64,000 nt of DNA from Nereocystis luetkeana (lineage: Eukaryota; Sar; Phaeophyceae; Laminariales; Laminariaceae). The position numbers were made by a program, and so were the translations under genes. Location of the stretch: the NCBI GenBank assembly GCA_031213475.1, contig JARUPZ010000005.1, positions 9,487,848 through 9,551,847 on the forward strand, read 5' to 3'. The notes beneath the pieces were generated by a model, which saw only the letters and a list, made by a program, of their open reading frames with translations, was not told the DNA's origin and did no database searches. Positions 4,833 through 58,565 of the stretch are shown in pieces (within the stretch, counting starts at the first letter, position 1; every line of letters begins with the position of its first letter).

Positions 4833-7800
4833 CAGCATACGGAACGCGCGGACAGCCTCTTTCACCTGGTGTCCGAGGGCCGTCAGCGACGCATCCACGT
4901 TCGTCGCGTCTACGTAGTTACAGGAGAGCCTCTTTCACCTGGTGTCCGAGGGCCGTCAGCGACGCATCCACGTTCGTCGCGTCTACGTAGTTACAGGAGA
5001 GGGCCAGCGTGTCTGTCAGGTTCTCGACTCGGTGAGGACAGCCGGCCGGCACAAACAGAAGGTCCCCTGCGACGTACGAGGCCGGTTGTCGTGGCGGCGT
5101 GGGGTCGGAGGCACGGACGGTCAGAGCCAGATTGCGACGAAAAGGCCCGAGGCACATCACGCTAGAGACAACGCCAGCGAGCTAAAATCTACCGCTATTG
5201 CCTACAATATCAGGGAAGTCTGAATACTAAAGCAGTACAAAATCCAAACGATTCTCATAAATCGGGACAGAACAGGACATACGTACTGTTGAAACCAGAA
5301 AGTTTATTGTGAAAACAAAACAACGCGACCCTGCCAGAGAAGCGAATCGTTTCTATGTGCAAGCCAAAACTATTTTCGCCAAGAGAAGGCACGAAGGGAC
5401 AAAAAGTTGTTCTCGGAAAAAAATCGACGAAACAGTCGGATATTTCTGACAACCGCTGCGTCGAACACGTCGCACCGGCCTCCAGAATTCCTTCATATCC
5501 TCTCGCCAGAAGCGCCGCGGGAGTTCGGACAGCATCCGGCGTTTCCACGTCCGCCTCAAATACGGGGTCGTGGCAACCCTCCGGCCAGACCGGGTGCAGG
5601 AGGGGGGCCTGTTCTTTGGGGAAGAGGAGCCACCGTTTCTTGCCCTCCAGCAGCGCCATCCAAAAGTGGGACCTTGGTTTCACGGTCAGCATATATATAT
5701 ATATATATGTACATAAGACACACGCGAAATTGAATGCCGCTTTGTATATTATTTTAATCATCACTTTTACTTTCCAAGCCTAACGAACTCGTAGGAGGTT
5801 TTACCTACCCTCAACGAGCTTCTCGGCGAGCCGTGGTCACAGGTGTCTACCCTTCTCCCCCCCCCCCCGGTACGTGCCTTTCTTTTTTGTCGCGCATAGG
5901 GTTCAACATTCATTCCCACTGCTCGTCGATATCCATCGAATGTAGATAGCTCACGCTCTCGCGCTTTCCGCTAATCAATTCTTAAATGCAAGAAAAAGCC
6001 CTGTACGGGCATGTACTCGGTGAGACTTGAACCCACGAAACTGACCTTGATAGGCACGCGTACCCCCTACCAAGCCACCGGGGACGCCGGATGCTGCTGT
6101 GCTCAATTAATAGTAGAAGCGTCAATTGAAAGGGGGGCCTTGGTTTCAAGATATACATACCAATATATATATATATATAAATATATCTATATATACTAGA
6201 CACCCATGAGAATACATGCCGTGGTGCTCTATGCACAGCAGCGCCATCACAAAGTGGGGCCTTGATTTGACGATCAGGGTATAAGGTACCTACACATATC
6301 AGAACCCGCCCCGCTGCGCTCTACTAGCTGCGCATTTCAAAAGTGGGATTATGACTTTCACTATCAGGATTGAAGACACACACACACACACGAAAAAAAA
6401 CACGCCACTGCCGGCAGGGAGGTAATACCTGGTAGCAAACAGAGCGCGCAATCCCGACCCCGCTACAAGGTATGTCGTGGAAAAAGCGTTGAGGGGGCCA
6501 AGGGCGTACGTGAGGAGGGAGGGGGGGGGGGGGGGGGGGAGGGGGAGGGTGTATTCTTCGCCATGCATGACCGTAGTTGTATGGCCATACATGGGCCCAC
6601 GTGAGGAGCGATCCGCGCGTTTGTGGTGACGTTTTTCCGTCGCGGAAGGGGAGCCCTTCGCGTGTCACCACCACCTCGGGGGGGGGGGGGGGGGGCGATC
6701 CCGCACCAAATCGCGGATGAGCGCCCGCCCCAAAAATTCGAAAGCTTGAGAAAACAAGCACAGCCGTCAAGCACAGCCGTCTATATCTCGAAGCTTTCAG
6801 ACGCGCACGAAACACCGAAGAACCCACCAACAAAAATCCCAAAACCTTGGGAAACTAACGCAGCTGTCTGTATACTTCGAAGTAGAAACTATTCGGACGC
6901 ACTTGAGGAGCCAAGAGCAAACCCCCCGGTGCAAGCGCTTGTGGAAAGCAAAAGCACTGTTGATGTCTACGTACACAAAGCCCCCTCCCCTCCCCTCCCC
7001 TCCCCTCCCCCCGAAAACAAAACGCTGCTGTCGTACGTATATCGAACCCCGACCCGACACCCGACCCCACGCAAAAGACACAACACATCATAGGAGGAAC
7101 CGCGCGCTGAGGTCTCTCACCCGAAGGAGTCGACGTGCATGTCGCTCTTGGATCCCTCAGGGCCCACGAAGAGGCTCGGCCAGCTGTGGAGGGAACAGAA
7201 AACAAGGGAGACCACGGGGTAAGATGGGAAAAAATCAAATGGATCACGAATAGCCGATTCTTTCCCAAGGCGACAGATACACGGCGAGGCTTTTGATGTG
7301 GTACGAGAACAGTCGGGGTTCGGGGAAGGCACCGCGCAATGTCACGCTGCAGAACAACGACCCATTGCCTCTGGAAACCATTTGAAAGGAATTGAGGGCA
7401 AATCTGGAGCACCAGACCGCGCCGAACACGGCCGTAACGGACGATAGCATTCTGCGAGACTTTCCCGAGCACCCCACCGCGGACCTCCCCCAGGAAGGGA
7501 GTGCTATCGCCGATGTTGACCGAGCCGGGGGAAGCTCAGGACACCGCGACTGAAACGCTTAGAGCTCAGCGTCTCCCGCATAAGACACACTCGATAGTAG
7601 CGGCTGCCGTTCACCACGTTACGCCGACTCCTTACCAGTAACAACGAGGCGCGTGAACCTGCTTTCGCCGACACGGCATTCAAATGGTCGCCCCTAACTT
7701 TTCGTCCGCGGAAACAGTACCGTACAATATTTTATATTCTCCGTTCCTTTCCAGCAAAGCCTCCTCCAGGGCATCGCGATGAATCTATCAAGAGGCACCC

Positions 7801-10800
7801 AAGAGTTATCGCCGTGCGCGCGCACCACAGCGATGCTTTTCACAGACAAAAAATAGAGCAATCATGCGAATGCCGTGTCAGCACTTCGGTACCGATTTAT
7901 GGTAATATGCCCCCTCTCTTCCCCCTCACCCCCCCCCCTCCCTTCCTTTCTGGGCGCCTACTAACCCCGCCCCGTCCCCCGTCTAGACGCCTGTTACCCC
8001 TCCCCCCCCCACCCCCCCCGCCGCCTGGGAGCCTTTCGTGACGACTACGGCCTTGCATGACACAAGTAACCCGCCCCCCCCTACGGTGCTCCGTCTCAAA
8101 AATTGATGCGTGGTCATTGGGTCAAATGACCAAGGCAGGGATCAAAGGAGTACGCCACCCCCCCCCCTTCTGGGTGCCTATCTAAAAACAATTTTCTCTG
8201 TGTGTCGTAGTCCTAGCTTATCTCCGCAAAGAACAATGCCCCTCCCCCCCCCCGTGCCTGGACGCCTACTATTTCCTTGAGGCACACATACCTATGCACA
8301 GCTGTCCTCGCCCGACCACCCGCTGCACCGCTGCAGCATGTCCCTCGCAAAGAACAGTACCCCCCCCCCCAACACTGTAAAACATGCCGGTCACTACGTG
8401 AGCTAGACTGTCAGGGTACCGTTTTTTTGTTTTTTGTTTTTGGCGGCCGCCCACAGCAGTTAGATCATTTTGTGTGAGGTAAAGAACCTTTACTCCCCAC
8501 AAAGGAATTGATCGTATCGCGTAGTGTTCATCGTAAGGCACCCAAGAGGCAGTTACATAGTACTCCCATCGCTGTCTCTGCAAGTGGCTAAAACCGGAAA
8601 TTCAATTAACTCATTCAAGCTGTCATCCAGATGCAAGCCCGCCTCACAATCGGTTCTTAGTAGGATGCAATCCATCCTTCACGCGACTCGTCGGACACCT
8701 CCCGGCGCTTCGCGCTTGGTGCAAGCAAAGTCTGCCTGGTCGGTGAAAACCCAACATGTGCCGTCCCGGCATTGTAGGGATGCGAGGGTCTATGGCCATA
8801 CGACTACGGCCATGCATGAGATCGAGTACATACCTCCTATAGAGTACCCCCCCCCCCCCCCCCCCCCCCCGCCCCCAGCACGCCTGCACGCCTAATATCT
8901 CCTACAAGCACATTTATCTTCGTTACGGTAATCCTTGCCCGGCCAACCACTGCAGCGTGCCCCCCGCAAAGAACATTGATCCCCCTCGCCCCCACGTCTG
9001 GTCGGCTATTATCTCCTAGAAACACACCTGTCTGTGTACGGTAATCCTCGACCCGCCACCCGCTGCAGCATGTCCCCCGCAAAGAACTTGGGTACCTGTG
9101 TTACGTTGCCGGCGAAATACAGGAGCGCCGACCAACAAAACAAGAAGATCAGTGACGGGATGCATTGCTCACGGTCAAAAACAGCGGCGTTTCAAGCGTT
9201 TGTTTCGTAGGGTATGTGCTCTGGATATACCCGGCTGTCCCTCGGGTACCCGCCCGGGGGATACCCGGCTGTCTCCCTGGTACCCGGGTATCTACTCGGG
9301 TATATCCAACATAACCAAGTTCGCTCACGGCCAGAACAGCGGCGTTTCAAGCGCGTGTTTAGTGGGGTATGTACTCTAGATGTACCCAGGAATATTTCCC
9401 CGTGTACCCGGGTATCTACCCAGGTATCACCAACATAACCAGGTTTGATACCCGCGTACCCCAGGGTGCATACCCAGCTTTTGGTACCCGGGTACCATAT
9501 CTCCAGGTTTTGGAACCCGGGTACCCCAGAGTAGGTACCCATGCTTTGGTGCCTGGGTACCTCCAGAGCACACAACCAGGTTTGGTACCCGGGTACTCCA
9601 GAGCACATCCCCAGGTTGTTGTACCCGGGCACCCCCGAGTACATGCCGAGAGTTTGATACCCGAGTACCTCAGAGTATATGTGCCGTATTATACTACACG
9701 AACCAATGCTCGATTTTAGCTCCAGATCACAAAAAAAAAACGCAAGTGGTTCAAGGACACCCCACCCCCATACCGTCCAAGACGCACGATAACGCACCCC
9801 TCAGCCGAATTTGGACAGCAGTGGTTTTCTCGAAAACGGGGAAGGTCTCAAACGCCGAGCGATACCGCAGCACTTCTACGGAAACACACCGTCGAGCTAT
9901 TTCGTCTCCCCGAGCTCAGAAAATACCTAATTATCATCAATTTTCCAGTGCGTCCAGCTTTGCTCTTCTGACCTACTATTTCCGGAGGGAGTGATGCTGG
10001 TCGTACCACTGTGTCCGGAAATATAACGACTGTTTTGGGGATTGATACGAGTATCAGCACCCTCCGACGATGTATTGGACAGCTTCCATTCCGACTTGGC
10101 CTTTTTATAAAACCATTATTCCGGTTACGTGTGTGGGGGTGGCTCCCTCGCCATGGAGAAATTCGGCTCAGATATTCGTTCCATAGGGGGCGTATCATCT
10201 CACCTCACCAGTGTGATACGGCAGGTAGGTGTATCTCCGGACGTCAAGACGTCGATTTTCAGGCGCGCCGAACGTTTTTCGCGCGCAGCAACCGAAGCAG
10301 CGTATCGACACAACATACCATGGTACATCCACACAACGAAACATCCCGATCGAAGCACGATGGGAGACGGAGGACGCCCTAGGCAGAAAAGGGCCCACTG
10401 CACGAAATAAAGCGTGCGGTCCTACATATATATATAAACGCCATTGCGGTCGAAACCCGTTCCTTTTACACGTTTGGCGGGCCAGATCAACGTACGCAAC
10501 AGATCGCACAGATAGTTTTCACCGATCTGCAGCATCTGTAGATACAAAGATTCCACGAGGGATGCTCTACAGGATCTGAATGATCTGTACGTGTTCCCGC
10601 AGTAGAGATCTACGAGTGGTGGTCATGTTGTCATCATGCGTGTGCCCGGGGTTTGTAACCACATTGTGATCTGATCTGGTACGATCTCTGGCCATCTGTG
10701 CACGTTTCCACGAGATGGATCTCTGGCATACGTATATATGCATGATCTACATACCTCGTATGTCCCAACCCATAGATCGGTACGATATATTCATAGATCA

Positions 10801-16860: not shown

Positions 16861-17084
16861 ATCGACATCTGATCATCAAGAAATACAGCTGTGACTTCTA
16901 TTTTTGACGCTACTGCAGACGTAGAGGAGACCGACGAGGGCAGCTGCCCCCGCGCGTTAACCCTGGCATCGCTAACTGCTTTCGTCGCGGCCAGAGCGCC
17001 CCGCGGAGCACGAACGGACGATTCTCCTGACAACGGGAACAGAGAGAAAAAACGCCGAGCGGTGCGTCTGTATATACATTCATC

Positions 17085-17395
17085 CGACGAAAGTCGGCGA
17101 GCAGCGGGAATGCTGAATTAATTAACCCCATGCGCGATAAAAATGAAGGCACGTATCCCGGGGGGGGGGGGGGGGGGGGGGTACTCGGTAGGAGAGATGT
17201 ACTCGATCTCATGCATGGCCGTAGTCGTATGACCATAGACCCTCGCATCCCTACAATGCCCGGACGGAGCATGTCGGGTTTTCACCGACCAGGCAGACAT
17301 TGCTTGCACCAAGCCCGGGGGGGGAAGGACGACACCTGCGACCATGGCTTTTGTCCAGAAGCTGGAAACTAAAAGTGACGATGAACACAAAAAAA
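17085..17395 (+). mobile_element. SINE-2-like copy interrupted by family D
   Basis: Left part GGCGAGCAGCGGGAATGCTG ... GATAAAAATGAAGGCACGTA; right part GACGACACCTGCGACCATGG ... GGAAACTAAAAGTGACGATG and A-rich tail (to 17400). The core mixes SINE-1 and SINE-2 features. Confidence 0.65.
17181..17317 (-). mobile_element. Family D fragment inserted in a SINE-2 G-run
   Basis: Plus strand: 21-nt G-run (17161-17181), GTACTCGGTAGGAGAGATGT ... GACATTGCTTGCACCAAG, then CCCGGGGGGGGAAGG and the SINE-2 3' end. The copy is 5'-truncated in the sense direction. Confidence 0.75.
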
Positions 17396-17479
17396 ATAAA
17401 AAACGAAACGTGTCGTCCTGATATTTTCGAATCCGTGTTTTTCGTTGCGTGAGCCTGTTGGTTATAGCACTGCCCACTA

Positions 17480-19884: not shown

Positions 19885-20385
19885 GGGTGTACTCGATAGG
19901 AGAGATGTACTCGATCTCATGCATGGCCGTAGTCGAATGACCATAGACCCTAGCATCCCTACAATGCCGGGACGGCACATGTCGGGTTTTCACCGACCAG
20001 GCAGACATTGCTTACACCAAGCGCGAAGCGCCGTGAGGTGTCCGGCGAGTCGCATGAAGGGTGAGCTGCATCCTACTAAGAACCGCTTGTGAGGCGGACT
20101 TGCATATGGATGACAGCTTCAATGAGTTAATTTAATTTCCGGTGTAGGCATTTCCAGAGACAGCAATGGGAGTACTATGTAACTGCCTCTTGGGGGCCTT
20201 ACCTTGAATACTACGTGATACGATCAATCCCTAAGCGCGGAGTAAAGGTGCTTTACCTCGCACAAATGATCTAACTCGACAACCAGCTGTGGGCGACCGC
20301 CAAAAAAACAAACACAACAAAAAAACGTTACCCTGGTTGTCTAGTTCACGTAGTGAGCGGCATGTTTTACAGTGTCGTTGCCAAC
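19885..20385 (-). mobile_element. Family D retroposon, near full length
   Basis: Plus strand: G-rich run 19871-19886, GTGTACTCGATAGGAGAGAT, GACAGCTTCAATGAGTTAAT, AACCAGCTGTGGGCGACCGC, ending GGCATGTTTTACAGTGTCG. Best-preserved copy; sense is the minus strand. Confidence 0.75.
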
Positions 20386-20670
20386 CGACGCCAACCCAAC
20401 CTATATAAAATAGGGGGGGGGAGGGGGGTGGGGGGGGTATGACGCCATTATTTTCATGACTGGCACTATATAAATAACACATCCCCTGGACATTTTTCTC
20501 CGTAACAGAGGAGGCATACACGATGAAGATGGCGGCTTTCGACATGGGTCATCGAGAGCCCTTTCTTTCGACAGATATACGCATCATCGCTCTATATACG
20601 GCATTTGCACACACACACCCGCTGTGGAGATAATCAGCCCCGAAAATCGTCCGAGGGGTTGTGTTATGCT

Positions 20671-21034: not shown

Positions 21035-21162
21035 CCCTCTTGTTTCCAATAGGAGAAGGAACTGTGCTCCGTCTACGTCTCGTAAGGGATGCGTTGTCAA
21101 TGGTCAAATCATTAAGGCAAGCAACAAATTAGTACACTTCCCCCCCACCCCCTCTCCCCTTC
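21035..21162 (+). mobile_element. Family C fragment next to a family D copy
   Basis: Contains AACTGTGCTCCGTCTACGTC, GGGATGCGTTGTCAATGGTC and AGGCAAGCAACAAATTAGTA followed by a C-rich run, then family D begins. Confidence 0.65.
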
Positions 21163-21640
21163 GTAAAACATGCCGCTCACTACGTGAGCTAGGCAACCAG
21201 GGTACCGTTTTTTTTCCTTTTTTTTTTTTTGGCGGTCGCCCACAGCTGGTCGTCCAGTTAGATCATTTGTGCGAGGTGAAAAACCTTTACTCCGCGCGAG
21301 TGGGAATGAACTTTTCACGTAGCGTTCAAGGTAAGGCACCCAAGAGGCAGTTACATAGTACTCCCATTGCTGTCTCTGGAGTTGCCTACACCGGAAAGTA
21401 GATCAACTCATTGAAGCTGTCATCCACATGCAAGTCCGCTTCACCAGCGGTTCTTAGTAGGTTGCAGCCCACCCTTCATGCGACTCACCCAACAGCTCAC
21501 GGCGCTTCACGCTTTGGTGCAAGCAATGCCTGCCTGGTCGGTGAAAACCCGACCGACGTGCTCCGTCCCGGCATCCTAGGGATGCGAGGGTCTACGGCCA
21601 TACCACTACGGCCATGCACGATATCGAGTAAACTCCTAGC
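21163..21640 (+). mobile_element. Family D retroposon, near full length
   Basis: Starts CGTAAAACATGCCGCTCACT and ends GCCATGCACGATATCGAGTA, then C-rich DNA 21641-21720. Same internal landmarks as the 8.4-kb copy. Confidence 0.75.
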
Positions 21641-21839
21641 CCCCACCCCCTCCCCTCCCCTCCCTCGCCGGGCAAGACACGAGCCCCCCTCCTCCACTCT
21701 CTACCGATCCCCCCCCCTCACCGAGCAGGACACGAGTGTCCGGGTCGTCACCACGCCTGAGCTCCTTCCGGAGGCTGCGAACCCTATCGCGGACGAAGGC
21801 CGCTCCGTCGTCGCTTCTGTTAACAACAAAGCAGCGAAA

Positions 21840-23949: not shown

Positions 23950-24170
23950 TGGGTGTGCTCATTGTCATGCATGGCCACAGTCGTATGACCATAGACCCTC
24001 GCACCCCAGCAATGCCGGGGCGGAGCGCGTCGGGTTTTCAACGGCCATGCAGACATTGCTTGAACCGAGCGCGAAGCGAAACGTGAGGTGTTCGGCGAGT
24101 CGCATGAAGGTTGAGCTGTATCCTACTAAGAACCGCTTGTGAGGCAGACTTGCATATGGATGACAGCTAG
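23950..24170 (-). mobile_element. Family D fragment
   Basis: Plus strand GCATGGCCACAGTCGTATGA ... GCATATGGATGACAGCTAG. G-run before (23940-23946) and after (24177-24188). Confidence 0.7.
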
Positions 24171-24175
24171 ATGGG

Positions 24176-24430
24176 AGGGGGGGGGGGATGCACATTTGCT
24201 GCTTGCCTTGGTTATTTGACCATTGACCACGCATCCCTTTCGAGCCGGAGCATCGTTCCTACTCCCAACAGAGAAACCTCCAACAATTGGGCTCACATTA
24301 CGTTTGATTTCATGTATCACATGAAAAAAACGCTAACCTTATCTCCTTCCTGTTTCGCCACCTGTGGCCACTATGTATCTCCTAGGATAATATTCGGTTT
24401 CTCGCTACTATATATTAATCGTGTGTCGAA
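24176..24430 (-). mobile_element. Family C retroposon (LINE 3' end copy), poly(C)-tailed
   Basis: Same sequence as the LINE C-terminus plus 3'UTR. The plus strand shows a G-run (24177-24188), a diverged head, TTTGACCATTGACCACGCAT, and CTCCTAGGATAA. It lies directly beyond the LINE tail. Confidence 0.75.
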
Positions 24431-24647
24431 TTCCTCGACGGAGGGGGGGGGGGGGGGGTACTCATTTGTTGCTTGCCTTAGTCATTTGACCATTGACCAC
24501 GCATCCCTTTCGAGATGGAGCACCGTTCCCACTCCTAATAGAGACACCTTCAAAAGTTGGGCGCTCATTACGTTGTTTCCATGTATTACATAGAAAAAGC
24601 TAATATCATCCCTTCCTGTTTGGCCGCCTGTGGCCACCATCTATCGC

Positions 24648-25483
24648 CTAGGATATCGATCGTTTTCTCGCCGCTATCCAGTGTGTCAGACCCTCCATGT
24701 CACATTCGTCTATTTCCCTCATCTCTCTAACACATCCCGTTCCTCCTTGTATATTTCACATTCTCCTACTATGCGAGTTCTACTCTATTGCTTTGCCACA
24801 CGGGCACATCTGCGCATCTATTTCCTCCTCCTCCCGGCTACTGGTATACTTCTTTCTTCGTTCTGGCACGTCCAGGTCACCTACACGAAAGCGCAGTTTC
24901 AGCGTTTTCGCGAAGTTCATTGGGCCGTGCAAATAATTTTTCATTCCTATTCATTCCCTCAGTCCCCCGTATATCTCCACGTGCTTTTTCGATTCCACCT
25001 TGTTTCGTAGGGCTAGCCTTTCCCTTCTTTCTGGTGTTTCTTCTACTTCTGCCTTGTACTTTCCAAACTTTACGGCGGACATCACCTCTTCTTGGTCGAC
25101 CCCTATATCCTTCCATACTTCTCCTAACTACGCTAACCCACCTTATTCCAGCTCGCCCTTTTGTTACTTTCTCCCATACAGCTCTATCAACTATGGCTGG
25201 CAACCTCTTTTTTGGCATGTTCCTTACTTTATATTGCCATTTCAACTTTCTCATATCTCTACTTGTCTTGAGTGGGTGCATTCCCAGCTCTGCTCTTAAT
25301 ACTATACTACTAGTCGTACTTGAACATCTTCTGATTTTTTCAGTTGCTGTCATCTGTACTGTTTCCAACTGTTTTACGAGTTTCGCGTTCCCTTGCCATA
25401 CGTCTCCTGCATATTCTAGCTTAGGTACTATCACAGTCATTAGGATACACCTCTTAACCCTGGTGTCAAGATGCGAGTCTGTT
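24648..25483 (-). pseudogene. LINE C-terminal region with Cys-rich motif
   Basis: Continues the RT frame beyond the MITE as DSHLDTRVKRCILMTVIVPK and LEYAGDVWQGN, then a basic region, AQMCPCGKA (a likely CCHC/CCHH half) and GLTHWIAARKRSIS before TAG at 24648-24650. Frameshifts occur near 24870. Confidence 0.75.
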
Positions 25484-25484
25484 A

Positions 25485-25589
25485 TTACGGGGGACCATAG
25501 TAAATAGGACCTACGATACACACAAAAACCTATATATTCATCTATTTTTACTAACAGTATTTGGTCCTATTTACTATGGTCCCCCGTAA
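25485..25589. mobile_element. MITE-A copy inside LINE ORF
   Basis: 105 bp flanked by TA (25483-25484, 25590-25591). Skipping the element and one TA rejoins the LINE frame (MDAI-L-TDSHLD), so it inserted while that frame was intact. Confidence 0.97.
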
Positions 25590-25594
25590 TAGGA

Positions 25595-26345
25595 TCGCGT
25601 CCATCTTGCCTACGTGTGCTTTGCCCTTTCCTACTACTTTTGCCATGTGGGTATCCCAAGTGCAGTCTTTTGAGATCTCTACGCCAAGGTAAGTATACTG
25701 GTCTACGATCCGCAATTCATCTTCTCCCCACCTCCAACTGAAACTTATCGGGTTCACCTTATCTTCGATACAAGCAGCTACTGCTGTGCATTTCTTCACG
25801 TTCGCCGTCACCTTCCATTGCCCAGTGTATTTTAGCGCCTTCTCTATTTGTTTCAGCAAAACCCCCACGAAGTCATCAGCAAACATCAATCGCGATGCCG
25901 TATCTTCCCCTACCGTGACCCCCTGCCTTGCTGCTTCAACTGCTACCATCAGGTCGTTAACATACATCTTGAATAGGTTGAGTGACAACGTACATCCCTG
26001 TGCAACTCCTTGTAAAATATCAACATACTTCGATATTTCCCCGTCCAGCACCACATCACTTCTCGCACATTCCGTCATCTTTTTCATCATTCTCCACATC
26101 TTTCTTCTGATTCCTATTTCCCATAGTTTTTCCCACAGCCCAATTCTCCATACTGTGTCGTAGGCCTTCTGTACATCTAGAAAGAAACAGTACGTTGTTT
26201 AGTCCCGCGTCTTTCCTACCTTGGAGTATCTTACCTAAGGCGTACACATGGTCTACGCAGCTACGGTCTGGCTTAAACCCTGCTTGCCGTTCACTTATTT
26301 TGTCTTCCTTCTCCATCATCGTTTCCATTCTATTGTTCAAAGTCT
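25595..26345 (-). pseudogene. LINE reverse transcriptase domain
   Basis: Motifs in order: RQAGFKPDRSCVDHVYAL (the RT R-QxGF..gRs block), LQGVAQGCTLSLNLFKMYVN (the QG....LSP.LF block), RLMFADDFVG (catalytic F/YADD), then KCTAVA and TYLGVEIS (thumb side). A frameshift near 26170 separates the first block from the rest. The frame is open from 26099 to 25595 until MITE-A cuts it. Confidence 0.9.
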
Positions 26346-27049
26346 TACGAAAAGTTGCCTATTAATAGTAGCGTTATCCCTCTATAGGTCCGCGGGTCAG
26401 CCTTCATCTCCTTTCTTGATTAAGTTCACTACCACTCCTTCTCTTCACCTCCTAGGTGCGTAGCCGTTTTTCCATATCCAGTTATACAACATAACCAGCA
26501 TGGTAACCATCTCCTTCTCCCCCGAATTTCATAAGTTCATTTTCCATTTGGTCTGCCCCTGCTGCTTTTCTAATCTCAAGTTTAGCTACAAACTGAATTA
26601 CTTATTTCCTTGTGAACTCTCGCCGTAACCCTTCCGAACCACTGTCTTCCCTTTTTGATGCATCTACGTTCGCCTCTGCCCACGCGTTGATTTCCTTCTC
26701 GAATTCTGCATCGAACGTTTCCTAGTTCGCGGTAATGCTCGACTAGTATTTCCCTTTTTCCCTTCGAACTACTAACCCGCCACATTACCGTTCTGAGCTT
26801 TTAAGGTAGCTATTCTCGTGTCTGCCTCTCCTGCTTGTTTGCCCAGTATCCCTTTTATCCCCACCCGCATCTGCTTCATCCCGCCCTCAAAGTCTTCATT
26901 CGTCTTATTTACTGCTGAGCGTCTTTCCATATCCCTTTCTTCTTTTTCTTTACCATCTTTTTTATTTTCTTTCTTGCCATAGCATACTCCTCCCATCCTG
27001 TCGTAGGTTTACTCGACGTATACCTTGCGTGTGCCTTTCTCATCGACCC

Positions 27050-27139
27050 CTTTAGAACCGCAGTCCCATTTTGGGGACAAACGACTCGAAAATTGAGTGG
27101 CTTGTCCCCAAAACGGGACTGCGGTTCGAAAAGGGTTCA
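27050..27139. mobile_element. MITE-B copy inside LINE linker
   Basis: CCCTTTAGAACCGCAGTCCC / AACGGGACTGCGGTTCGAAA; possible TCAT duplication at the edges. Confidence 0.92.
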
Positions 27140-27179
27140 TGTTATAGCCTCTTTCAATTCCTCATCCCACCAGTTTACT

Positions 27180-27378
27180 GCTCTGTTTTTTTTTTTTTTT
27201 TTCTCATCCCATTCATTATCTTCGCACATCTTCTTCTCTCTCTCCTTCCAACTCGTAACTCAGATCCGGGGTCACATAGCAGGCTCTTCTCCCCCCTTCC
27301 CGCTACGGTACGTGCCTTCATTTTATCGCGAGGAGATTTCAGCCTTTTCTTCCCTCGTCGACTCGCATCGATCTGTTG
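27180..27378 (-). mobile_element. SINE-1, 5'-truncated, inserted in LINE
   Basis: Poly-T 27187-27204 on the plus strand is the A tail; the body ends at GACTCGCATCGATCTG. CTGTT on both sides may be a target-site duplication. Confidence 0.8.
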
Positions 27379-27788
27379 CATACTATCAACTTGTTCCCTA
27401 GTACCTTACTTGCTGCGGTCTTGACCAACTGCTCCCATCCTTCTATTGCCCTAGCTCCTGCATCATCCCTCTCTATGTCGTTCCTTGTTGTACCTATTCT
27501 TTCCAATAGCTCGGAAAAATGCTCTGCATTTTCGGCCATCTCTTCTTGGAATTCTTTGCGTTTCTCTTTCACTTTTATTCATAGTTTATCTATTCTCCAT
27601 CTGTGTAATTTCCTACCTCGTCTTTGTTCGCATACTCTCGTCTGTCGACTGTCTGCCCCTATTAGACAGTGATCCGTAGTTCCAACGTCCGCTGCGCATA
27701 CATGTAGGAATGTTTCCTTACCACTTCCATTTTCCACTGCTATAAAGTCAAGGAGAGAGCTTTCTCCCTTTTTGTAAGCACTGGTTGT

Positions 27789-27979
27789 CTAGTCCATCCC
27801 GGTTCTGCCTCTTTTACTCTGTCGTTCAACGTCTTGTCTCTCGCTGTGTTCGCGGAACTTCAACATCTCTCCCCCATTCTTATTCTCCGTTACTTTCCCG
27901 TACTGTCCAATGTTCTCATTCGGTTTCTTTGCCTTCCCATTTCTTGAATTGAAACCTCCCACTATTAATAGTACTACTT
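27789..27979 (-). pseudogene. LINE endonuclease (APE-type) fragment
   Basis: Reads VVLLIVGGFNSRNGKAKKPN, resembling the GDFNARxG block of apurinic-type LINE endonucleases, with Gly in place of the catalytic Asp (GGFN). Upstream catalytic blocks are missing because the copy is truncated. Confidence 0.6.
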
Positions 27980-28049
27980 CTCGACGGGGGGGGGGAGGGG
28001 GTTGATCGAAGGGAATCATGCAAGCAGGGAGAAAGACTATAATAGTGCA

Positions 28050-30811: not shown

Positions 30812-30936
30812 TAGTGTGTTGTGGGGCTTTACTCTGTACACCCGCCCATGTCATAACAACGCAACCAATGGCTCCTGCCGTCTGTACTATCACCGCATCA
30901 AGCATGATGTGATACGCACATCATGCTCCTCTATCT

Positions 30937-31070
30937 TTTTTTCTCTTTTTTTTTTCTCATCCCGTTTATTATCTTCGCACATCTTCTTCTCTCTCTCCTT
31001 CCCACTCGTAACTCAGATCCGGGGTCACATAGCAGGCTCTTCTACCCCCTTCCCGCTACGGTTCTTGGGA
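30937..31070 (-). mobile_element. SINE-1 3' fragment
   Basis: T-run then CTCATCCCGTTTATTATCTT ... CCGCTACGGTTCTT. Followed after 25 bp by the oppositely oriented fragment below. Confidence 0.75.
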
Positions 31071-31094: not shown

Positions 31095-31740
31095 TATAAA
31101 ATACTGCGAAGTTCGAAGCCAGTCGACGAGGGAAAAAATGGATGACGTCTTCGCACGATAAGATTGCAGCCTTAAAAGGCAAGAACCGTAGTTGGGGGTG
31201 GGAGGGGGGGGCGTACTCATTTGTTGCTTGCCTTAGTCATTTGACCATTGACCACGCATCCCTTTCGAGACGGAGCACCGCTCCTACTCCTTACAGAGAT
31301 ACTCCCAACATTCGGGCGCTCACTTCGTTTTTTTTTCGTACATTACATACACGCTTTCTGCCTGCGTACCCAAGTGTTGCTCGCCGTTGTAATTTGACCA
31401 TTGACCACGCATCGACTTCGAGACGTGGGAGAAGAGTAGCTGGAGTGTGTAGGGGGGGTGTACTCACTGGTTGCTTGCCCTAAGTCGTTTGACCATTGAC
31501 CACGCACCCCTTTCGAGACGGAGCACCGTTCCTACTCCAAATAGAGACACCTCCAACAATTGGGCGCTCACTACGTTGTTTCCATATACTACATATAAAC
31601 TTATTTTTTTGGGGGGGGAGAGTCTGTTGCGTGTCCCCGGATCTGAGTCACGACTATTTAGTACGAGGGACAGAGATAAGAAAGGCGTTTTTAAGATGAT
31701 TAATGGGGTGAGCAAATAACGAAGAAAAAAGAACAAAAAA
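31095..31740 (+). mobile_element. SINE-1 variant split by family C copies
   Basis: Left half 31108-31210 (GTCGACGAGGGAAAAAATGG ... AAAGGCAAGAACCGTAG, G-run); right half 31607-31740 (GGGGGGGGAGAGTCTG ... CCCCGGATCTGAGTCACGAC, A-rich tail). Family C copies occupy 31211-31606. Confidence 0.65.
31211..31606 (-). mobile_element. Two to three family C copies inside a SINE-1 G-run
   Basis: Plus-strand heads CGTACTCATTTGTTGCTTGC (31213), a degenerate TTTGACCATTGACCACGCAT (31394), and GTACTCACTGGTTGC (31460). Each is preceded by a G-run except the degenerate one. Left flank (31095-31210) and right flank (31607-31740) are the two halves of a SINE-1-like element, so these copies entered its G-run. Confidence 0.7.
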
Positions 31741-36461: not shown

Positions 36462-36780
36462 CAAAGCCGGCACGCCCACCAAAAATACGCCGGGTACGCC
36501 TTTACCGTACCGATCATACCCTTGGTGATTTGCGCCACAATTCCCACTCCTCGTGGGACCACATCCAGGATCATCCCTGGATCATCTGTGAATGATTTCT
36601 GCAAAAGTTTGGGCGTGAAGCATCACGATGATACACGATGATGGTCGAAGTATGCTCACTCCAAGAGCATCCCGTCTCCCCGAAGTCAGAAAATAAATGC
36701 CAGGTACCAGTACCAGGTATCAGGTACCAGATACCATTTTATTTTGTACTCGTAGAATCATAAATATCATTTTCCTCTCG

Positions 36781-44489: not shown

Positions 44490-47400
44490 ACGCACGACTG
44501 GGGCAGTCGGATCGTCCGGGATGTCACCGTTGTCGGACGAAGGGTGGCCCGAACTGTTGCCGTTTCCGTTGCTCGAGTTGTGGGACGGAAACAGCGTTGG
44601 CGGCGCCTTTCGTAGACGTCGACGTAGAAGCGGCCGACGCACCTCCCGATAGGGGACGGTACTGGTTCGTATGTAGGTGGTTGCGTCCGCTCCTTGCATG
44701 TCGGCGTCTACGAAATGCGCCGACGGTGTTTCCGATCCAAAAAACGACAAAGGCAATAATTTGGGCCGTGCTTCTTCCACGACGGCTATATCCCCGAAAA
44801 TTGTTTCCAGGGCTAAGGGTCATTCTTATCGGAGAGTTTTTCCCCCCAATTTTTCGACGTGTTTTTCGCGCAATTTTTCAATTTTTCCATATTTTCCTGT
44901 TTTTTTGTTTTCCAAATATTGGAATGTTAACGAACTTGATATTTTTGGTTCTGGAGAATTTCACGAATAGTGACAGAACGCCTCCGTATATTGATACCTA
45001 TCTCCGATTATTTCCAAACTTTGGAAGTTTTGGAAAAAACGCTCTCCGATAAGAATGAACCTAAGAAGGGACTCATGCACAGCGTCGCACTATCCGTGTC
45101 GCGCTCCGTGGGGGTGTATACCAACGTGACTCAAAATTAGTCATTCATGCCGCCCCCCCTCGATTTAGCTGGTGTAGCTGGCTGCGCTTTCCCGAATTGA
45201 GTCGGAAGTCACCTTCTCGGACTTGCCGACTAAAGTCAGATAGTTGGAGGGAACGGCACCTATACCGACGATTAGTCGTGGAATCGTGAAATCCTCCCGA
45301 CTCTCAGCTCTTATCCCTCCCATGTCCTCCCCCCCCCCCCTTCCTTCCTTCGCGCCCGATCTCCCCTCCTTCACGTCCTATTCCCCTCCCCCCCCCCCCC
45401 CCCCCCCTCCTCCTCCCCTTCTCCTCCGCCGCCACCCGGCGTGACCCAACGCGATGCAAACCCAACCCAACCTAACCCTGCTGAACGTCAGGAATTCCGC
45501 GAGTTCCCCCTGCGAGAGATCGAGGAGATGACGCACAACGTGAGGCGCTTCCGCATAGCGCTTCCGTCCGACGAGCACGTGATGGGCCTGTCTACCGCTT
45601 CTTGCATCGTGGTAAAGGGGAAGGGAAAGGATGGGAGTGTGGCCGTGCGTCCCTACACACCCACCACCACGAACGTGACCAAGGTAAGGGGGGAGGAGCG
45701 GAGGGCGGGGGGGGGGGTACTCGATAGGGGAGATGCACTCGATCTCATGCATGGCCGGAGTCGTATGAACCATAAGACCCTCGCATCCCTACAATGCCGG
45801 GACGGAGCATGGGGCGGGCCGGGGGGGGGGGGGGGGGGTGTACTCGATATCATGCACGGCCGTAGTCGGATGGCCATAGAGGGGAGGATGGGGGGGGGGG
45901 GGGGGGGGAGGAGGAAGGGAGGGAGGCGGCGGGGGGGGGGGGGGGGAGAGGGGTGTACTCGATAGGAGACATGTACTCGATCTCATGGATGGCCGTAGTC
46001 GCGGGGGCAGGGAGAGGGGGGGGTGAGAGGGGGGGATTTTTTTTTTTTTTTTTTCGCGCCTTCCCCACCCATTTCGTGTTACGGCCGCACGCAGCCCCAA
46101 CAGCCGAAGCATTCCTGTTCCTTATATAATGCCTACTGACACATGTGCTTGACCTCCCCCCGCCCCCCTCCCCCCCCCCCCCCCCCCCCATCCCTCGTGC
46201 TATTAATCATCCCCCCCCCCACCCCCCACGATATCCCTCTTTTTTTGTAACTGAGCAGGGTCACTTTGACCTGGTGATCAAGGTGTACCCCGACGGGAAC
46301 GTTTCCTCGCACATGTTCAGCCTCAAGATCGGCGACATGGTTGAGGTAAGACACCGTTCGGGACTCCCGCTATGTGCAGCTGCGTCCTGCACGAAACTTT
46401 TGTGCAGGACGTGTGTCGTCGAGTTCAACCTTGCACGTGGACCCAGACCAACCCGACCCCAGGAATGACCCTAGCCCCCAGGCCTAGCCCTAAACCCCAA
46501 TCCTTCGGGGGGCGCGAGGTCGGCAGGGGCAGTCACGCGACTCCGCCGCGTGTTTTGCTGGCGTTTTTTGCGAAAAAAAAAACGTCGGGCGGCCGAAAGA
46601 CCCGCATCCTGCACAAAGGCCGCACGTGGGTCAAGTCGCCTCTCGGGTGATGGCCTAGACCTTGGCAGGCGTTACGAGCGACTACGTCCTAGCTTGCTTG
46701 TGCAAGGTTTTGGGGTGCATCTAGAGGATTGCACACACTTCGCAGGCGTTGTGGACGATTGCTGGCTTTTGCTCTTGCTCCTATTGATAGCAACATTTTT
46801 GTTGTGATGAGGAGTTGGTGTGGACCATGAGGCGTTTTTCATATTGAGCACTAGTGCAGTGTGGACGATCAACAACCATCTTGCGTAACCAGGCGTTGAG
46901 TGTGGACTATCTATCAACATTTTTTTTGCCGGAGTTGGGCCACGTCATGAGCACTACCTACGAAAACCACTCTTGCCCATATCTGTAAGGACCGTTTTGA
47001 TCAGATATTTTCACACAACCGGTGCTTATTTTGAAACCCAGTGTTATTGATTTTGCGCGATCCCTGATGGTTACCTGGTACACGTTTGCTGAAATCCGTC
47101 CCTTCTGCTTTTGTTTTGGATGGTCCGCCTGCGTGACACACAACTTGCAAAACACGACGTTTTCGACGAAATCCTCGATTTGTCACAGCTGCTATTAATA
47201 TTCGTTTTTTCTTCCAAATTTTTATATAACTATGTTGTAACAGGTGAAGGGGCCCTTCCCGAAGTTCGAGTACAAGGCCAACGTCAAGAAGGAGATCGGG
47301 ATGATAGCTGGCGGTACTGGTGAGCGCAAGGACAACAGAGGCCCCCCTTCTTAAAACCCCTTTAGAACCGCAGTCCCGATTTGGGGACAAAGTACTTGAA

Positions 47401-50400
47401 ATTAGAGTGGATTGTCCCCAAAACGGGACTGCGGTTTTTAAAGGGGTTAATTCCCGACCTTTTTGGCTAAGGCTGCTGTCCCGTATTCCGTACTGGGACG
47501 CGAATGCTGTCCCGTATTCCGTACTGGGACGCGAATGCTGTCCCGTATTCCGTACTGGGACGCGAATGCTGTCCCGTATTCCGTACTGGGACATGGATGC
47601 TGCCCCGTATTCCGTACTGGGACACGAATGCTGTCCCGTATTCCGTAGGGACACGAATGCTGTCCCGTATTCCGTAGGGACACGAATGCTGTCCCGTATT
47701 CCGTACTGGGACACGAATGCTGTCCCGTATTCCGTAGGGACACGAATGCTGTCCCGTATTCCGTATTGGGGCACAGAACTCTCAAATTCCATGTACAGCA
47801 GAGGTTTATCCCCGAAACGGAATTGCAGTATTTGGCCTAGAAGGGTATGGTTTGATTTGCCCAAGAAGGCAAACTGAGGTCCCATTGAGGCGTTCTACGA
47901 TAGAGGTGTACCTTTGGGGATACAAAACACAAGAAAAAGTTTCTGGAGCCACCACTGACTGCTGTGTCCTGACATGACGGGCGGGGCGCCAGTGGGACGA
48001 TGAGTTTGTAAACTTGCGCTCTACATTGGGCTCTACATTGCTGGGGGCATAGTACGTACGCACACGTATTATATCACGAGATGTTGTGTGGCGTCGGCCG
48101 TGTTCGTATGTTTTGTTCCCGTTAAAATTCCGCGTTTTTCCTTGGGGGGGAGGGGGGGGGGAGGGGGGGGGGAGGGGGGCATCTAGGAGCCTCGGAAATA
48201 TGAGGGTGAAGGTTTATCGTAAAACGCCTCCATCGTGTGGAAAAAACACCCTAATTCTGAGTAGTTTATCCCCGAAGCGGGACTGCAGCTTGTCCCACTC
48301 GTGAAACGATTTAATTTGCCCTAGAAGGTAAACTGCGGTCTCATGGCGGGGACAAATGTCAGTCAGATTCTTGTTTCTGGGGGCCATACTAAATACCAGG
48401 TACCTGGTAGGACCTACGGTACATACCAAAACCTAAATGTCTCGCTTTTTTTTACCAGCAATATCTGGTCCTATTTACTGTGGTCCCCCGTAATATTTTA
48501 ATAGTAGGCTACCGTAGCACCGGACTGACTGCAGCAGTCCTAAACACTGCAGGATAAAAAGGGTCAAGGGACCAATCGATGAGGGTAGAAAACGATACGC
48601 TAGGAGACTGCTGTGATGCTTCGATCGCGTGTACTATTAACAGTACGGGTTTTCTCCGCCCTCATGCAGGGAACACAACAGTCCATATACGTGGTATATA
48701 GACCAGGGAGACAAAATCTGGAGCTGCAGAATTGAAGGAGTGGGTGTGTCTGTAGTTGGGGGAAGTAATGGAAGCATACCGGTGGTATTTCCGAGGCTGC
48801 ACGTAGCTTGCCATGTGTACGTGTATCGTTTCTCTCTTTCGGAAGAAAATGAATCCGTACTACGTGAGGTGTCTCAAGTCCAAGTCCACTATTTTGTTAA
48901 TTCCATCCACCCATACGTATGTATATATATATACTCCGGAGTATATTATACCTGGTATACACATACCCTAATCGCGTGCCTCTTTTGGCGAAAACATTGG
49001 GTAGTTGTAAATACCCGTCAGGTTTTTCAGCATCTGTTTCGGCTGCATCAAGCATTCCTCGGGCCTCATTCTATTTTTCTGGCGTATTCGTGAGGCATAT
49101 AAATATTTTGTGAAGAAAAAATCGAGTGTGATAAAAAAACCCCGCAGGTGTTCGGTCTGACGGTGGGCGGGCCTCCCTCTCCGGCTTTTACCCTAGCAAC
49201 TCGAACGGGGGGGCCCCAGTATGTTTCGGTGGAAACGGGGGCCCCCACATATTTCGGCGGAAACTTGGGGGCCCACCCCATATGTTTCGGCGGCCGCGGA
49301 AATTGTAAACTCGCTTCGCTCGTAATCACAGAGTATTTAGTCCGCAGCGGCGGTCTCACTAGAGTGTTGGTGCTGCGGGGTTTTTCGGTACTAAATACCT
49401 CCCCCCATCCTGCCCATCCACCCCCCCCGACCCCCCCCACCCCCCCCCTACCCCCCACCTCTTCTCCCCCCACTCTCTTAAGCCCCCACACACCGACCCC
49501 CCCCCCCGCGCCACCTTCCACCCCTGCCTGGTCGGTGAAAACCCGACGTGCTCCGTCCCGGCATTGTATGGATGCGAGGGTCTATGGTCATACAACTACG
49601 GCCAGGCGCGACAATGGGTACACCACGCCCCCACCCCACTCCCACTACCAACCTAACCCTTTGAAGCCCCCCCCCCCCCCCCCGAAAGCGTGCCTCCCCC
49701 CCCCTCCACCGACCCCCGACCTACCCACGCCGCGCCGACCTCTCCCCCCTCCGCTGGTATCCTGGTTGTTATTATGTAGGCATCACGCCGATGTTGCAGG
49801 TCTGCAGGAGCTGCTGTTCAACCCGGAGGACAAGACGAAGGTCACCCTGCTCTTCGCGAACCAGACGCCGGCGGACATCATGCTCAAGTCGGAGATCGAC
49901 AAGCTCGCGGCGGAACACGACAACTTCGAGGTCATCTACCTGGTGCGTTGCGCGACGTTTTGTTTTGATACCTGGTTTTCGGGGGGGGGGGGGGGGGGGG
50001 GGGGGCGGGGGGGGATTTGGTCAGGGTTTTGATGGTGTAAGGTTAGGCATGCGTGTCGGGGGGGGATTTGGTCAGGGTTTTGATGGTGTAAGGTTAGGCA
50101 TGCGTGTTTTCTTCGTAGTAGTAGTAGTAGTAGTAGTGATAGAGGCGTTTTTTTATTTTTTTTTGTTGCATATCTGATGCGTGGCGTGAAGTTTTTGATT
50201 TTGTTTTTCCAGGGTTGGGTTATTTTTTGTGCTCTTATCTTCGCAGTCAACGACAATGCTTGCACCACCATCACCATCGCCACCACCACCATCGTCATCA
50301 CCACCACCACCACCACCACCACCACCACCACCACCGCCAACATTGCCGCCACCACCACCAACACCACCGCCAACACCTCCGCCACCAACAACACCATCGC

Positions 50401-53400: not shown

Positions 53401-56400
53401 TGTCAAAAACTGTCAGGCCTCTCTAGCCTGCCGCCCGCCCGCCCGCCCACAAAAGGAAGAATGGTCTTGTGGAATGGACACGTGAACAACAAAAACAATC
53501 CGAAGGTGTCAGTCCTTGCCTGCCGCCCACGAGGCACCCAGACAGCTATTGATAGCTACAGGAGCTACCCGGCGGTGGGGCCATAAAAAACACGCTCGAG
53601 CGCAATAAATGGGGACAGACAGGCTTGTGTTGTTGTGTTTTCGTACCCGGTACGTTGGCATTTCATTTGCCTGATGTGAAGGCAACACACACGCACACAA
53701 TGAAATCGTGAAATAGTGGTGTTTAAAAAAAAAAAATCCCGTCGATAACACCCCCCCCTAGGGAAGTGAGTGTGTTTCCGAGGCGATTATTACGGGGGGC
53801 CATAGTTAATAGGACCAAATATTGTTATTACGGGGGACCATAGTTAACAGGACCTGTGGTACACATAAAAATCTATATGTTTAACCATTTTTACTAACAA
53901 TATTTGGTCCTGTTAACTATGGCCCCCCGTAATAGTAAAAATGCTTCAATATATAGGTTTTTATGTACCAGGGTATACCATAGGTCCTATTAACTATGGC
54001 CCCCCGTAATAGTTTCTCCCGAACAAATCGCGGGGGGGAGGGGGGGGGGCGTACTCATTTTTTGCTTGCCTTAGTCATTTGACCATTGACCACGCATCCC
54101 TTTCGAGACGCGGGGGGGGGGGGGGGGGGGGGGGGGGGGGAAGAGGGGGGCATACGCGATGGAATTGGTGGCTTTTTACGAAAAATCTCGTTCGGCATCT
54201 TTTCCATGGATGGATTCATGCATCATCGCTCGGCGTTTGCACTCTGCTACCGTCGTCGTCGAGACCCCCCGCCCCCCCCTGGGCTGTAATCGGTCCATGT
54301 TCAAGTCCGCCTCACAAGTGGTCCTTGGTGGGAAGCAGGTCACACTTACATGCGACTAGCCGAACACCTCACGTTTCGCTTCGTGCTGCTCGGTGCAAGC
54401 GATATCTTCTCGGTCGATGATAAAACCAGGCGTGCTCCGTTTTCCCGGAGTTTTCGGTATGCGAGAGGGTCTATATGGGTCAAACGACTGCGGCCATGGA
54501 TGATATCGAGTACACCCCCCCCACCCCACCCCCCTCCAAACAAGAGGGGGACGACGGACGCGCTGGCAAAAAAAAAAGGTTTGACGTGGCCGGATAAAAT
54601 AAATGTCGTCGACGTCTTTTTTTTTTTCGCCACGAGAGGTTGAAAAAATCGTCGGAGGTTTTTTTTGGCGGGGCCACCATGTTTGCACAACCCCACCGCT
54701 CTGGTTGTGGTGTGTGTGTTGTGTGCCCCCTCCTGCGGGCGAGACGACGTACAGGCTCGGAAAAAAGTTATCCCAGGGGGTGTTAGTTAGTGATCGTGGG
54801 TAGTCGCCTCGCCTCGGGGATTTTCTCGAGGGGTGTGGTATGAGGCGTGCATGATAGCACCCCCCCCACCCCCCCCGGGATTTTGACTTTTTTGCTAGCG
54901 AAGGAGTCTTTCCAAACAAGTGTTAGCAAGCACACACAGAAGTAAAAATGGTGTTTTTTTTTATGGCCGTACGGTGTGTCTCGCACGCGGACAGAGACGC
55001 ACGAACGGCAGGCGAGGGGAGACACAGACAGAGGGACGCCTCCACGCCCCCGATTGAATTGTCGGAACTCTCCACGCTCGGACGGGCCGTTTCATACTGG
55101 GAAGACGGACGGGGGGGAAAAGGGGACAGGGACTGGAGTTCTCAGTTTTGGAGGCGTTTTCCCGTTTTTTTTTCTTTGTTTTGTTTGTAGATGAAAATCG
55201 CTCCACAGGGGCTTGTGCCGATTTCTTTCGATTCTTGACGGATTTCTTTGCACACCGTTCATGTGGCCTGGCCGTTGCTGTCGAGGCGACATGCCAGTAG
55301 TTTTTTTTTGTGCTGGGCACGTAGCATTTGGCTGGTTGTTGGTGTGGGTGTTGTTCTGGTCGTCCTCGGGGTGTACCGGTATTGGGGTATATATTTATAT
55401 CTGGAACATGATCCGCTGGCAGTAGTTGCTGTTGATGATGCCGTTGCTGTTTTCAGTTCTGTGGTGTCGATGTATGTATTCCTGGTGGGTACGTACTCAA
55501 CTGGTTGTCGTGGTGATGTCCTCTGTTAGTACAGATCGAGCGCAGGAACTCTGATCCTAGATCATGCAGGTTTGTGCAGCTCCCATCCGGCAACATGAGC
55601 TGGATCACTCAGATCGCGAATCTATCTGCCCTGAGAGACCTCAATCATGATTTGTAGATGATCTGTAGGTGATCTGTAGATGGTTTGTAGACGATCTGTA
55701 GATAGGTTATCTGTGGAATATCTGTAGATAATTTACAGATGATCTGTAGGCTATCTATAGATCATCTGCAGATCACTTGTAGATGATTTGTAGACGATAT
55801 GTATATGAGGCAATCTGTAGATGACCTGTAGCTGATCTGTAGATTGTAGATGATCTGTAGCTGATCTGTAGATGATCTGTAGATGACCTGCAGATCACTT
55901 GTACATGGTTTGTAGACGATCTGCAGATGATCTGCAGGCGATCTGTAGATGACGTGTAGATGATCTGTAGAATGTCCCTAGACGATCTGCAGATGGTCAC
56001 TGGTAAATTATCTATAGATGATCTGTAGACGATACGTCCGATACCTACTGTAGATCATGCAAGGGCAATCGATCATCTCTACGCACAACATGTGGAGTAC
56101 CAGGTATGTTAGCTGATCGTCTCTGTCATCATCGTCGTCGTTTTTTGTTTTGGATGCTCTCGTTCTTCGTGACTGTCGTATGTTTTTAGGTGGACAAGCA
56201 ACCCGAGGGCCCCTGGACGGGCAAGACCGGATACGTCAGCGCCTCCTTGATCGAAACCCACCTGCCGAAGCCGTCCGACGACAACGTGATCTTCATCTGC
56301 GGCCCCCCCGGCATGGTCAACGTGAGACCTCCAAAAATAACAAAAACAGTACTCGTACACGAGAGAAAGGATGAAAATACGTTGTTGGGCCTGTGCGCCG

Positions 56401-58374: not shown

Positions 58375-58565
58375 GAGTCGACGAGGGAAGAAATGGCTGA
58401 AGCCTTCTCGCGATAAAAATGCAACCTTAAAAGGCAAGAACCGTAGTGGCGGGGGGGGGGGGGGGGCTGCTGTTTGACCCAGGATCTGAGTTACGACCAG
58501 GAGGGACAGAGATGAGAAAGGAGGGTGAGGACAGAACAAATGGGATGGACCACAAAACAAACAAA
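58375..58565 (+). mobile_element. SINE-1 variant, 5'-truncated
   Basis: GAGTCGACGAGGGAAGAAAT ... AAAGGCAAGAACCGTAGTGG, 16-nt G-run, CAGGATCTGAGTTACGACCA, A-rich end. Same subfamily as 31.1 kb. Confidence 0.75.

What the first reader, a model, noticed from the sequence alone, without database searches (positions are those of the whole stretch)
24443..27979. Poly(C)-tailed retroposition system that homes to C/G-runs
Seen: families C, D and E end in about GTAC plus a C-run. Family C is continuous with the LINE C-terminus (GLTHWIAARKRSIS, stop) and 3'UTR, so the LINE itself ends in poly(C). Copies are cut at varying distances from the end away from the C-run, like 5' truncation. They lie inside C/G-runs, including the G-runs of two different SINE copies (17.16 and 31.21 kb), and in each case the element's C tail lies on the strand whose target is C. 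The 7.9-9.1-kb cluster is all head-to-tail. Known: LINE enzymes prime reverse transcription at the target, and tails can pair with it. Inference: a poly(C) tail annealing to G-tracts guides insertion and builds same-orientation trains.
Basis: partly seen in the sequence, partly recalled or inferred. Interest (0 to 1): 0.88.

Follow-up and report, generated by a model that had tools for sequence, protein, structure and literature searches.

The report
Poly(C)-tailed retrotransposons landing in C-runs
In a brown seaweed's DNA, a family of copy-and-paste elements and its short partner end in a run of C and mostly sit inside older runs of C, facing the same way, as if the tail of the RNA helped to choose the landing place.

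Summary
The window comes from a brown alga. A LINE (24459-27979, minus strand) and a SINE-like family (D) share their last ~75 nt and end in GTAC plus a C-run. Family E looks like a local tandem array.

Of 20 C/D copies, 16 have a C6+ run within 24 nt upstream and 0 a G6+ run (background 2%); 17 have one downstream. A model scan found no further confident copy. Two insertion sites interrupt SINE C-tracts whose uninterrupted copies are in the window. The LINE carries an 8-bp target duplication. All five trains are head-to-tail. In proteins from other contigs (120 of 210 seen; one named Laminaria digitata), C-rich codons follow the tail in most, and 19 of 120 hold a second unit in the same direction.

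Best reading: an RTE-like LINE whose poly(C) tail anneals to nicked G-tracts. Target preference and orientation are shown here; annealing is inferred. No genome-wide count was possible. New variant of SSR-targeting LINEs; my searches showed no poly(C) precedent.

The parts
24459..27979 (-). c4: 5'-truncated, decayed LINE; ORF ends 3 nt before the C-run; contains a SINE2 copy (27181-27371) and two palindromic MITEs (25483-25592, 27046-27137)
   Evidence: RVT_1; 69% to P0001 over the read-through; stop position; repeats
24443..24458 (-). poly(C) tail of the LINE (G16 on the + strand)
24434..24441 (.). CTCGACGG, target-site duplication at the 3' side of the LINE
27980..27987 (.). CTCGACGG, target-site duplication at the 5' side of the LINE, running into a G-run
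24190..24437 (-). c3: LINE 3' fragment directly behind c4; the duplication of c4 runs into its 5' end
23957..24171 (-). d5: D copy directly behind c3's C-run (train c4-c3-d5)
8038..8070 (+). d12: short D end (weak match, nhmmer E = 0.45)
8083..8154 (+). c1: LINE 3' fragment behind d12
8371..8846 (+). d1: long D copy between two E units, C11 before and C24 after
21046..21137 (+). c2: LINE 3' fragment, no C6 run upstream
21160..21641 (+). d3: long D copy in the tail of c2
19888..20412 (-). d2: longest D copy, C-runs on both sides
17182..17316 (-). d4: D copy inside the C-tract of a SINE1 copy
31213..31610 (-). c5-c6-c7: three LINE 3' fragments in a row inside the C-tract of a SINE2 copy; c6 (31363-31405) has no C-run on either side and c7 none upstream
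45718..45999 (-). d6-d7-d8: three D ends in a row separated by C-runs, next to exons of the host cytochrome b5 reductase gene (d6 weak, E = 0.054)
54051..54111 (-). c8: 61-nt LINE end between C29 and C10
54280..54514 (+). d10: D copy in a C-run on the other strand
49525..49620 (+). d9: D copy in C-rich sequence
6555..6592 (-). d11: D end with a C tail and no C-run upstream
5857..5868 (+). C12 in an uninterrupted SINE1 copy (empty site); the other is 61145-61151 (minus strand)
58451..58466 (-). C16 in an uninterrupted SINE2 copy (empty site); five more SINE2 copies have C5-C7 there

Best explanation
A brown-algal LINE with an AP-type endonuclease and a reverse transcriptase, probably of the RTE or RTE-X kind, and its ~0.5-kb non-coding partner D share a ~75-nt 3' signal followed by GTAC and a poly(C) tail. 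Shown by sequence in this window: most copies lie in C-tracts, with the element's C-tail on the C-strand, and at two sites the tract is older than the insertion. Inferred: the enzyme nicks the G-strand inside the tract, the exposed 3' G's pair with the RNA's poly(C) tail, and reverse transcription starts there and often stops early (5' truncation). Each insertion leaves C-runs on both sides, so later copies land beside older ones in the same direction and head-to-tail trains grow.
For:: C6+ run on the 5' side in 16 of 20 copies and G6+ in 0 of 20, against about 2% of 24-mers; MITE control 1 of 24; uninterrupted SINE copies show C-tracts (C12 and C7 in SINE1; C5-C16 in six SINE2 copies); 8-bp duplication around the LINE, reaching into the older fragment c3; five trains, each in one direction; 18 model hits below E = 0.01, all in the list; in other contigs PP within 16 residues after the tail in 79 of 106 against 31 of 249 windows further on; second unit in the same direction in 19 of 120 proteins; 14 of those 19 junctions carry PP; endonuclease and reverse-transcriptase domains in the full-length relative P0001.
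Against: Four of 20 copies have no C6 run upstream (c2, c6, c7, d11) and c6 has none at all. Annealing is not observed, and orientation alone fits an endonuclease with strand preference. In other contigs the 5' side shows only a little extra proline (55 of 444 residues before 37 first starts, many of them not true 5' ends), and one D-LINE junction seen by eye (P0231) has no proline. Fifteen of the 20 copies built the search model, so they match it by construction. One window, no genome-wide count.
Confidence: 0.7

Rival explanations
1. Target choice by the endonuclease alone: it recognises C/G-tracts (or a folded G-strand) and nicks only the G-strand. The 3' C-run is the other half of the target or its duplication, not a tail needed on the RNA, as with LINEs specific for telomere repeats.
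For: It gives the same orientation and trains. Most insertions lie wholly inside the run, so tail and target C's cannot be told apart.
Against: c2, c7 and d11 have a C-run after the element but no C6 run before it. In other contigs C-rich codons after the tail are far more marked than before the first unit. Both point to a tail carried by the element, but boundaries there are rough and the copies few.
Confidence: 0.2
2. Post-insertion growth: copies insert anywhere with a short C tail, and the C-runs around them grow later by replication slippage.
For: Long homopolymers are unstable; the run lengths differ widely.
Against: Slippage of a tail does not make a C-run on the 5' side (16 of 20), and uninterrupted SINE copies already carry the tract.
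Confidence: 0.05
3. Tandem duplication, gene conversion or assembly error at homopolymers made the trains.
For: Homopolymers are prone to both; family E looks like a tandem array.
Against: Trains mix LINE and D units with different truncation points, the same arrangement is seen in other contigs, and the window has no N.
Confidence: 0.05

Closest known systems
RTE-clade LINEs with SSR tails (Tay et al. 2010, PMC2887409; abstract and Discussion read)
   Same: One ORF with endonuclease and reverse transcriptase, an extremely short 3'UTR made of simple repeats, many 3'-end fragments.
   Different: There insertion sites are said not to appear sequence-specific and tails are often di- or trinucleotide repeats; here the tail is poly(C) and most copies lie in C-tracts.
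RTE-X LINEs and RTEX-N1 of Ectocarpus (PMC12477816; section 5 part 1 and passages read)
   Same: Brown alga; autonomous LINE plus a ~600-bp non-autonomous family (over 6000 copies) with a related 3' end.
   Different: No tail or target preference is stated in the text I saw; Figure 1C (terminal motifs) and the supplements were not seen. Sequences were not compared.
LINEs specific for simple repeats: DONG (TAA)n, TRAS telomere repeats, Togen (TG)n, some HERO (as cited in PMC2887409 Discussion and PMC4640811 passages)
   Same: Pre-existing simple-repeat target.
   Different: Other repeats. For Togen and HERO the text I saw puts them among or near restriction-like-endonuclease lineages; here the relative P0001 has an AP-type domain. 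A homopolymer C target was not among those I saw.
[quoted passage not shown] abstract and sections 3.3 and 4.1 read)
   Same: LINE and SINE share a 3' end; microsatellite-like tails; pairing of tail and target proposed.
   Different: There copies are rarely flanked by target sequence resembling the tail; here they mostly are.
Mammalian L1 (partly recalled; Meyer et al. 2010, PMC2837659, abstract read)
   Same: Homopolymer tail; the T-tract and poly(A) pairing is the recalled analogue.
   Different: 5' homopolymers there are inverted tails, poly(T); the equivalent here would be 5' poly(G), seen in 0 of 20.

Membership tests
APE-type non-LTR retrotransposon (LINE) | Reverse transcriptase and AP-type endonuclease domains | tested here: met
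   RVT_1 in the window fragment; RVT_1, Exo_endo_phos and Exo_endo_phos_2 in the full-length relative P0001. The window copy itself is decayed and its endonuclease fragments gave no Pfam match.
APE-type non-LTR retrotransposon (LINE) | 5'-truncated copies with target-site duplications | tested here: inconclusive
   Lengths 33-3521 nt from a common 3' end: met. A duplication is visible at one copy, c4; elsewhere it would be C's only.
RTE / RTE-X clade | Placement in a reverse-transcriptase tree with reference members | not tested
   No reference set was used; the name rests on the brown-algal description in PMC12477816 and the short SSR 3'UTR of PMC2887409.
RTE / RTE-X clade | Single EN-RT ORF and extremely short SSR 3'UTR | tested here: met
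   P0001 carries both domains in one protein; the ORF of c4 stops 3 nt before the C-run.
RTE / RTE-X clade | Insertion without sequence preference (as stated for RTE in PMC2887409) | tested here: not met
   C6+ run upstream in 16 of 20 copies against 2% background. It is a description, not a strict definition, so it does not settle membership.
LINE specific for a simple repeat | Most copies in one pre-existing repeat, in one direction | tested here: met
   In this window only: 16 of 20, 0 of 20 reversed; two sites with uninterrupted copies. Genome-wide not tested.
SINE (family D) | 3' end shared with a partner LINE | tested here: met
   56 of 68 bases identical between typed consensuses; alignments.
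SINE (family D) | RNA polymerase III-type 5' head | tested here: inconclusive
   ARAGORN and Rfam found nothing in the window; no promoter search was made; origin of the D head unknown.

The most novel reading that the evidence does not exclude
A self-feeding landing-site system across brown algae: the poly(C) tail of the RNA, not the endonuclease, picks G-tracts by base pairing. Each insertion makes new C-tracts that recruit further LINE and D copies in the same direction, so that one of the commonest repeats of these genomes spreads along homopolymer tracks it makes itself.
Probability: 0.4. Interest if true: 0.8.

Novelty: new variant of a known kind. Interest (0 to 1): 0.6.

Why it matters
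The role of the microsatellite-like tails of LINEs and SINEs is an open question (stated in PMC13295347), and for Bov-B tail and target rarely match. Here they match in most copies seen, in direction as well. A C-tail with a G-tract target is a clean case in which tail pairing and endonuclease choice can be separated by swapping the tail. It would also account for part of the long C/G-runs of this genome: 26 of 63 runs of 8 or more in the window lie within 30 nt of an end of a C/D copy.

Tried and rejected
Twin priming (inverted tail at the 5' end) was rejected: it would give a 5' poly(G), seen in 0 of 20 (model from the abstract of PMC2837659). Family E as a retroposon was not supported. A strongly conserved RNA fold was not shown: 8 predicted pairs, 1 with a change on both sides.

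Relatives in public DNA: none confirmed in viral contigs or genome contigs; those tools say records near the window's genome may be left out. The window's own genome could not be searched: the genome search gave no answer.

Literature: the listings of searches held no paper that I recognised as a poly(C)-tailed or C-tract-targeting LINE; long result lists were shown only in part, and the library holds open-licence papers only. PMC3747384 and PMC4421812 were seen as passages.

Full report
What the window is. The window is eukaryotic. Exons of a cytochrome b5 reductase gene lie at about 45.5-50 kb, and the best matches that bear an organism name are brown algae (Ectocarpus, Discosporangium, Sphacelaria, Choristocarpus). 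The species is unknown. Of 120 listed proteins sharing the D tail, one carries an organism name, Laminaria digitata.

The LINE. The element at 24459-27979 on the minus strand is a decayed, 5'-truncated LINE. One fragment gives the reverse-transcriptase domain. Read through with X at its breaks, it is 69% identical to P0001 (1360 aa), which has endonuclease and reverse-transcriptase domains. The RT part of P0001 also matches human L1 ORF2p and R2 among solved structures. In the right frame the protein goes on to ...[20 protein letters not shown], nearly the same end as in P0001-P0004, and the stop codon is followed by GTA and the C-run. The 3' UTR is thus almost only the C-run. This is like the RTE elements of Tay et al. 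[quoted passage not shown]

The partner. Family D is up to 525 nt long. It shares the last ~75 nt with the LINE: 56 of 68 bases are identical between typed consensuses (alignments). In the LINE's frame the D consensus has stops, so the shared part is likely an RNA signal. The predicted hairpins are weakly supported: 8 pairs, 1 with a change on both sides. In Ectocarpus, PMC12477816 describes RTE-X LINEs and a ~600-bp non-autonomous RTEX-N1 with a related 3' end and over 6000 copies. C and D are probably the same pair of families, but sequences were not compared.

Copies and C-runs. I list 20 copies (c1-c8, d1-d12). A covariance model built from 15 of them gave 18 hits below E = 0.01, all in the list, plus d6 at 0.054; two further hits at E = 0.27 and 0.7 were not counted, and d12 was not found. 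nhmmer gave 19 hits below E = 0.01, all in the list, d12 at 0.45, and six more at 4.9 or above. A C6+ run lies within 24 nt on the 5' side in 16 of 20 and a G6+ run in 0; on the 3' side C6+ in 17 of 20 and G6+ in 0. Background is 2.0% and 1.9% of all 24-mers. Palindromic MITE copies near any such run: 1 of 24. The misses are c2, c6, c7 and d11 on the 5' side and c6, d3 and d9 on the 3' side; d3 and d9 are C-rich. Restricting to the 18 hits below E = 0.01 gives 14 of 18 and 15 of 18 (tallied). Leaving out the eight copies that directly follow another C/D unit gives 10 of 12 on the 5' side (tallied; the chance figure treats them as independent). Mean C content in the 24 nt is 0.63 on the 5' side and 0.72 on the 3' side against 0.25. 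The 5' boundaries were set by eye.

Pre-existing targets. d4 interrupts the C-tract of a SINE1 copy; two uninterrupted copies have C12 and C7 there. c5-c6-c7 interrupt the C-tract of a SINE2 copy; six other copies have C-tracts of 5 to 16. At these sites the tract was there before. The LINE c4 carries an 8-bp duplication, CTCGACGG. On the element's strand the C-run comes first, and the duplicated bases continue into the 5' end of an older LINE fragment, c3 (boundary by eye). So c3 sat behind a C-run and c4 later landed at that run.

Direction and trains. 14 of 20 copies lie in five groups (d12-c1-d1 with E units between, c2-d3, c4-c3-d5, c5-c6-c7, d6-d7-d8), each in one direction. Neighbouring copies in different runs can point opposite ways (c8 and d10; d2 and c2-d3), so direction follows the run, not the region.

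Other contigs. One reading frame of D stays open through the tail. A search with 40 residues that stop before the poly-proline found 210 proteins, of which 120 are listed and were examined. 112 of 120 could be anchored; 106 of these had enough residues. PP occurs in the next 16 residues in 79 of 106, against 31 of 249 windows further on. 19 of 120 proteins hold a second D or LINE unit that restarts in the same direction; in three of them the gap is 19, 41 or 62 residues, and P0152 and P0153 are near-copies of each other. Three antisense segments scored 25 bits or more: one D (P0257) and two LINE-interior matches, of which P0167 falls in the palindromic MITE inside c4 and P0261 is unexplained; three more antisense matches at 22 bits appear. 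14 of the 19 junctions carry PP. Over 7 window copies, sense and antisense frames of the D end are about equally often open (8 and 9), so frame bias does not explain 19 to 1. Before the first unit, proline is 55 of 444 residues over 37 starts, many of them frame changes and not true ends, so the 5' side is not well tested there. One D-LINE junction noted by eye (P0231) has no proline.

Mechanism. Shown: the C-rich tail, the older tract at two sites, direction and trains. Inferred: nick in the G-strand, pairing of the 3' G's with the RNA's poly(C), reverse transcription, early stop. An endonuclease that nicks only the G-strand of such tracts would leave the same pattern. Copies with a C-run after but no C6 run before (c2, c7, d11) favour a tail carried by the element, but they are three and decayed. 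Twin priming as in L1 (abstract of PMC2837659) would give a 5' poly(G), not seen.

Novelty. LINEs that target simple repeats are known (DONG, TRAS, Togen, some HERO; [quoted passage not shown] Here tail and target mostly match. The listings of searches showed no poly(C) case. Figure 1C and the supplements of PMC12477816 were not seen and may record the tail. I rate it a new variant of a known kind.

Limits. One 64-kb window; the genome search did not complete; the evidence from other contigs is through open reading frames only; homopolymer lengths in assemblies are uncertain.

Noticed in passing
window 5741-6090, 17081-17420, 60926-61255 (SINE1); 2513-2700, 4097-4299, 27181-27371, 30934-31062, 31121-31729, 36780-37120, 58374-58570 (SINE2): Two SINE-like families with a C-tract in the middle; next to it both read about GGTACGTGCCTT...TTTTT.TCGCG, perhaps a shared central domain. 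One SINE1 copy has a tRNA-like stretch near 60926-61000 (by eye; ARAGORN reported none).
   Followed up: partly
window 25483-25592, 27046-27137 and 22 other places used: Two palindromic MITE-like families of about 90-115 bp; two copies lie inside the LINE c4.
   Followed up: no
window 45500-50000: Exons of a cytochrome b5 reductase gene with the D train d6-d7-d8, d9 and tandem repeats in and around its introns.
   Followed up: no
window 37101-37400, 47471-47774, 50923-51443, 55646-56058: Local tandem arrays seen in the self-comparison; the array at 50923-51443 has a C8 in each of its listed units (51005, 51136, 51267).
   Followed up: no
window 7929-9091: E array: ~100-nt units with C-runs, into which d12, c1 and d1 are set; E2-E4 are 70-79% alike.
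   Followed up: partly
D copies d1, d2, d4, d6, d8 against d5, d7, d9, d10, d11: D comes with one or two GAGTAC-like units before the C-run, suggesting slippage or two subfamilies.
   Followed up: no
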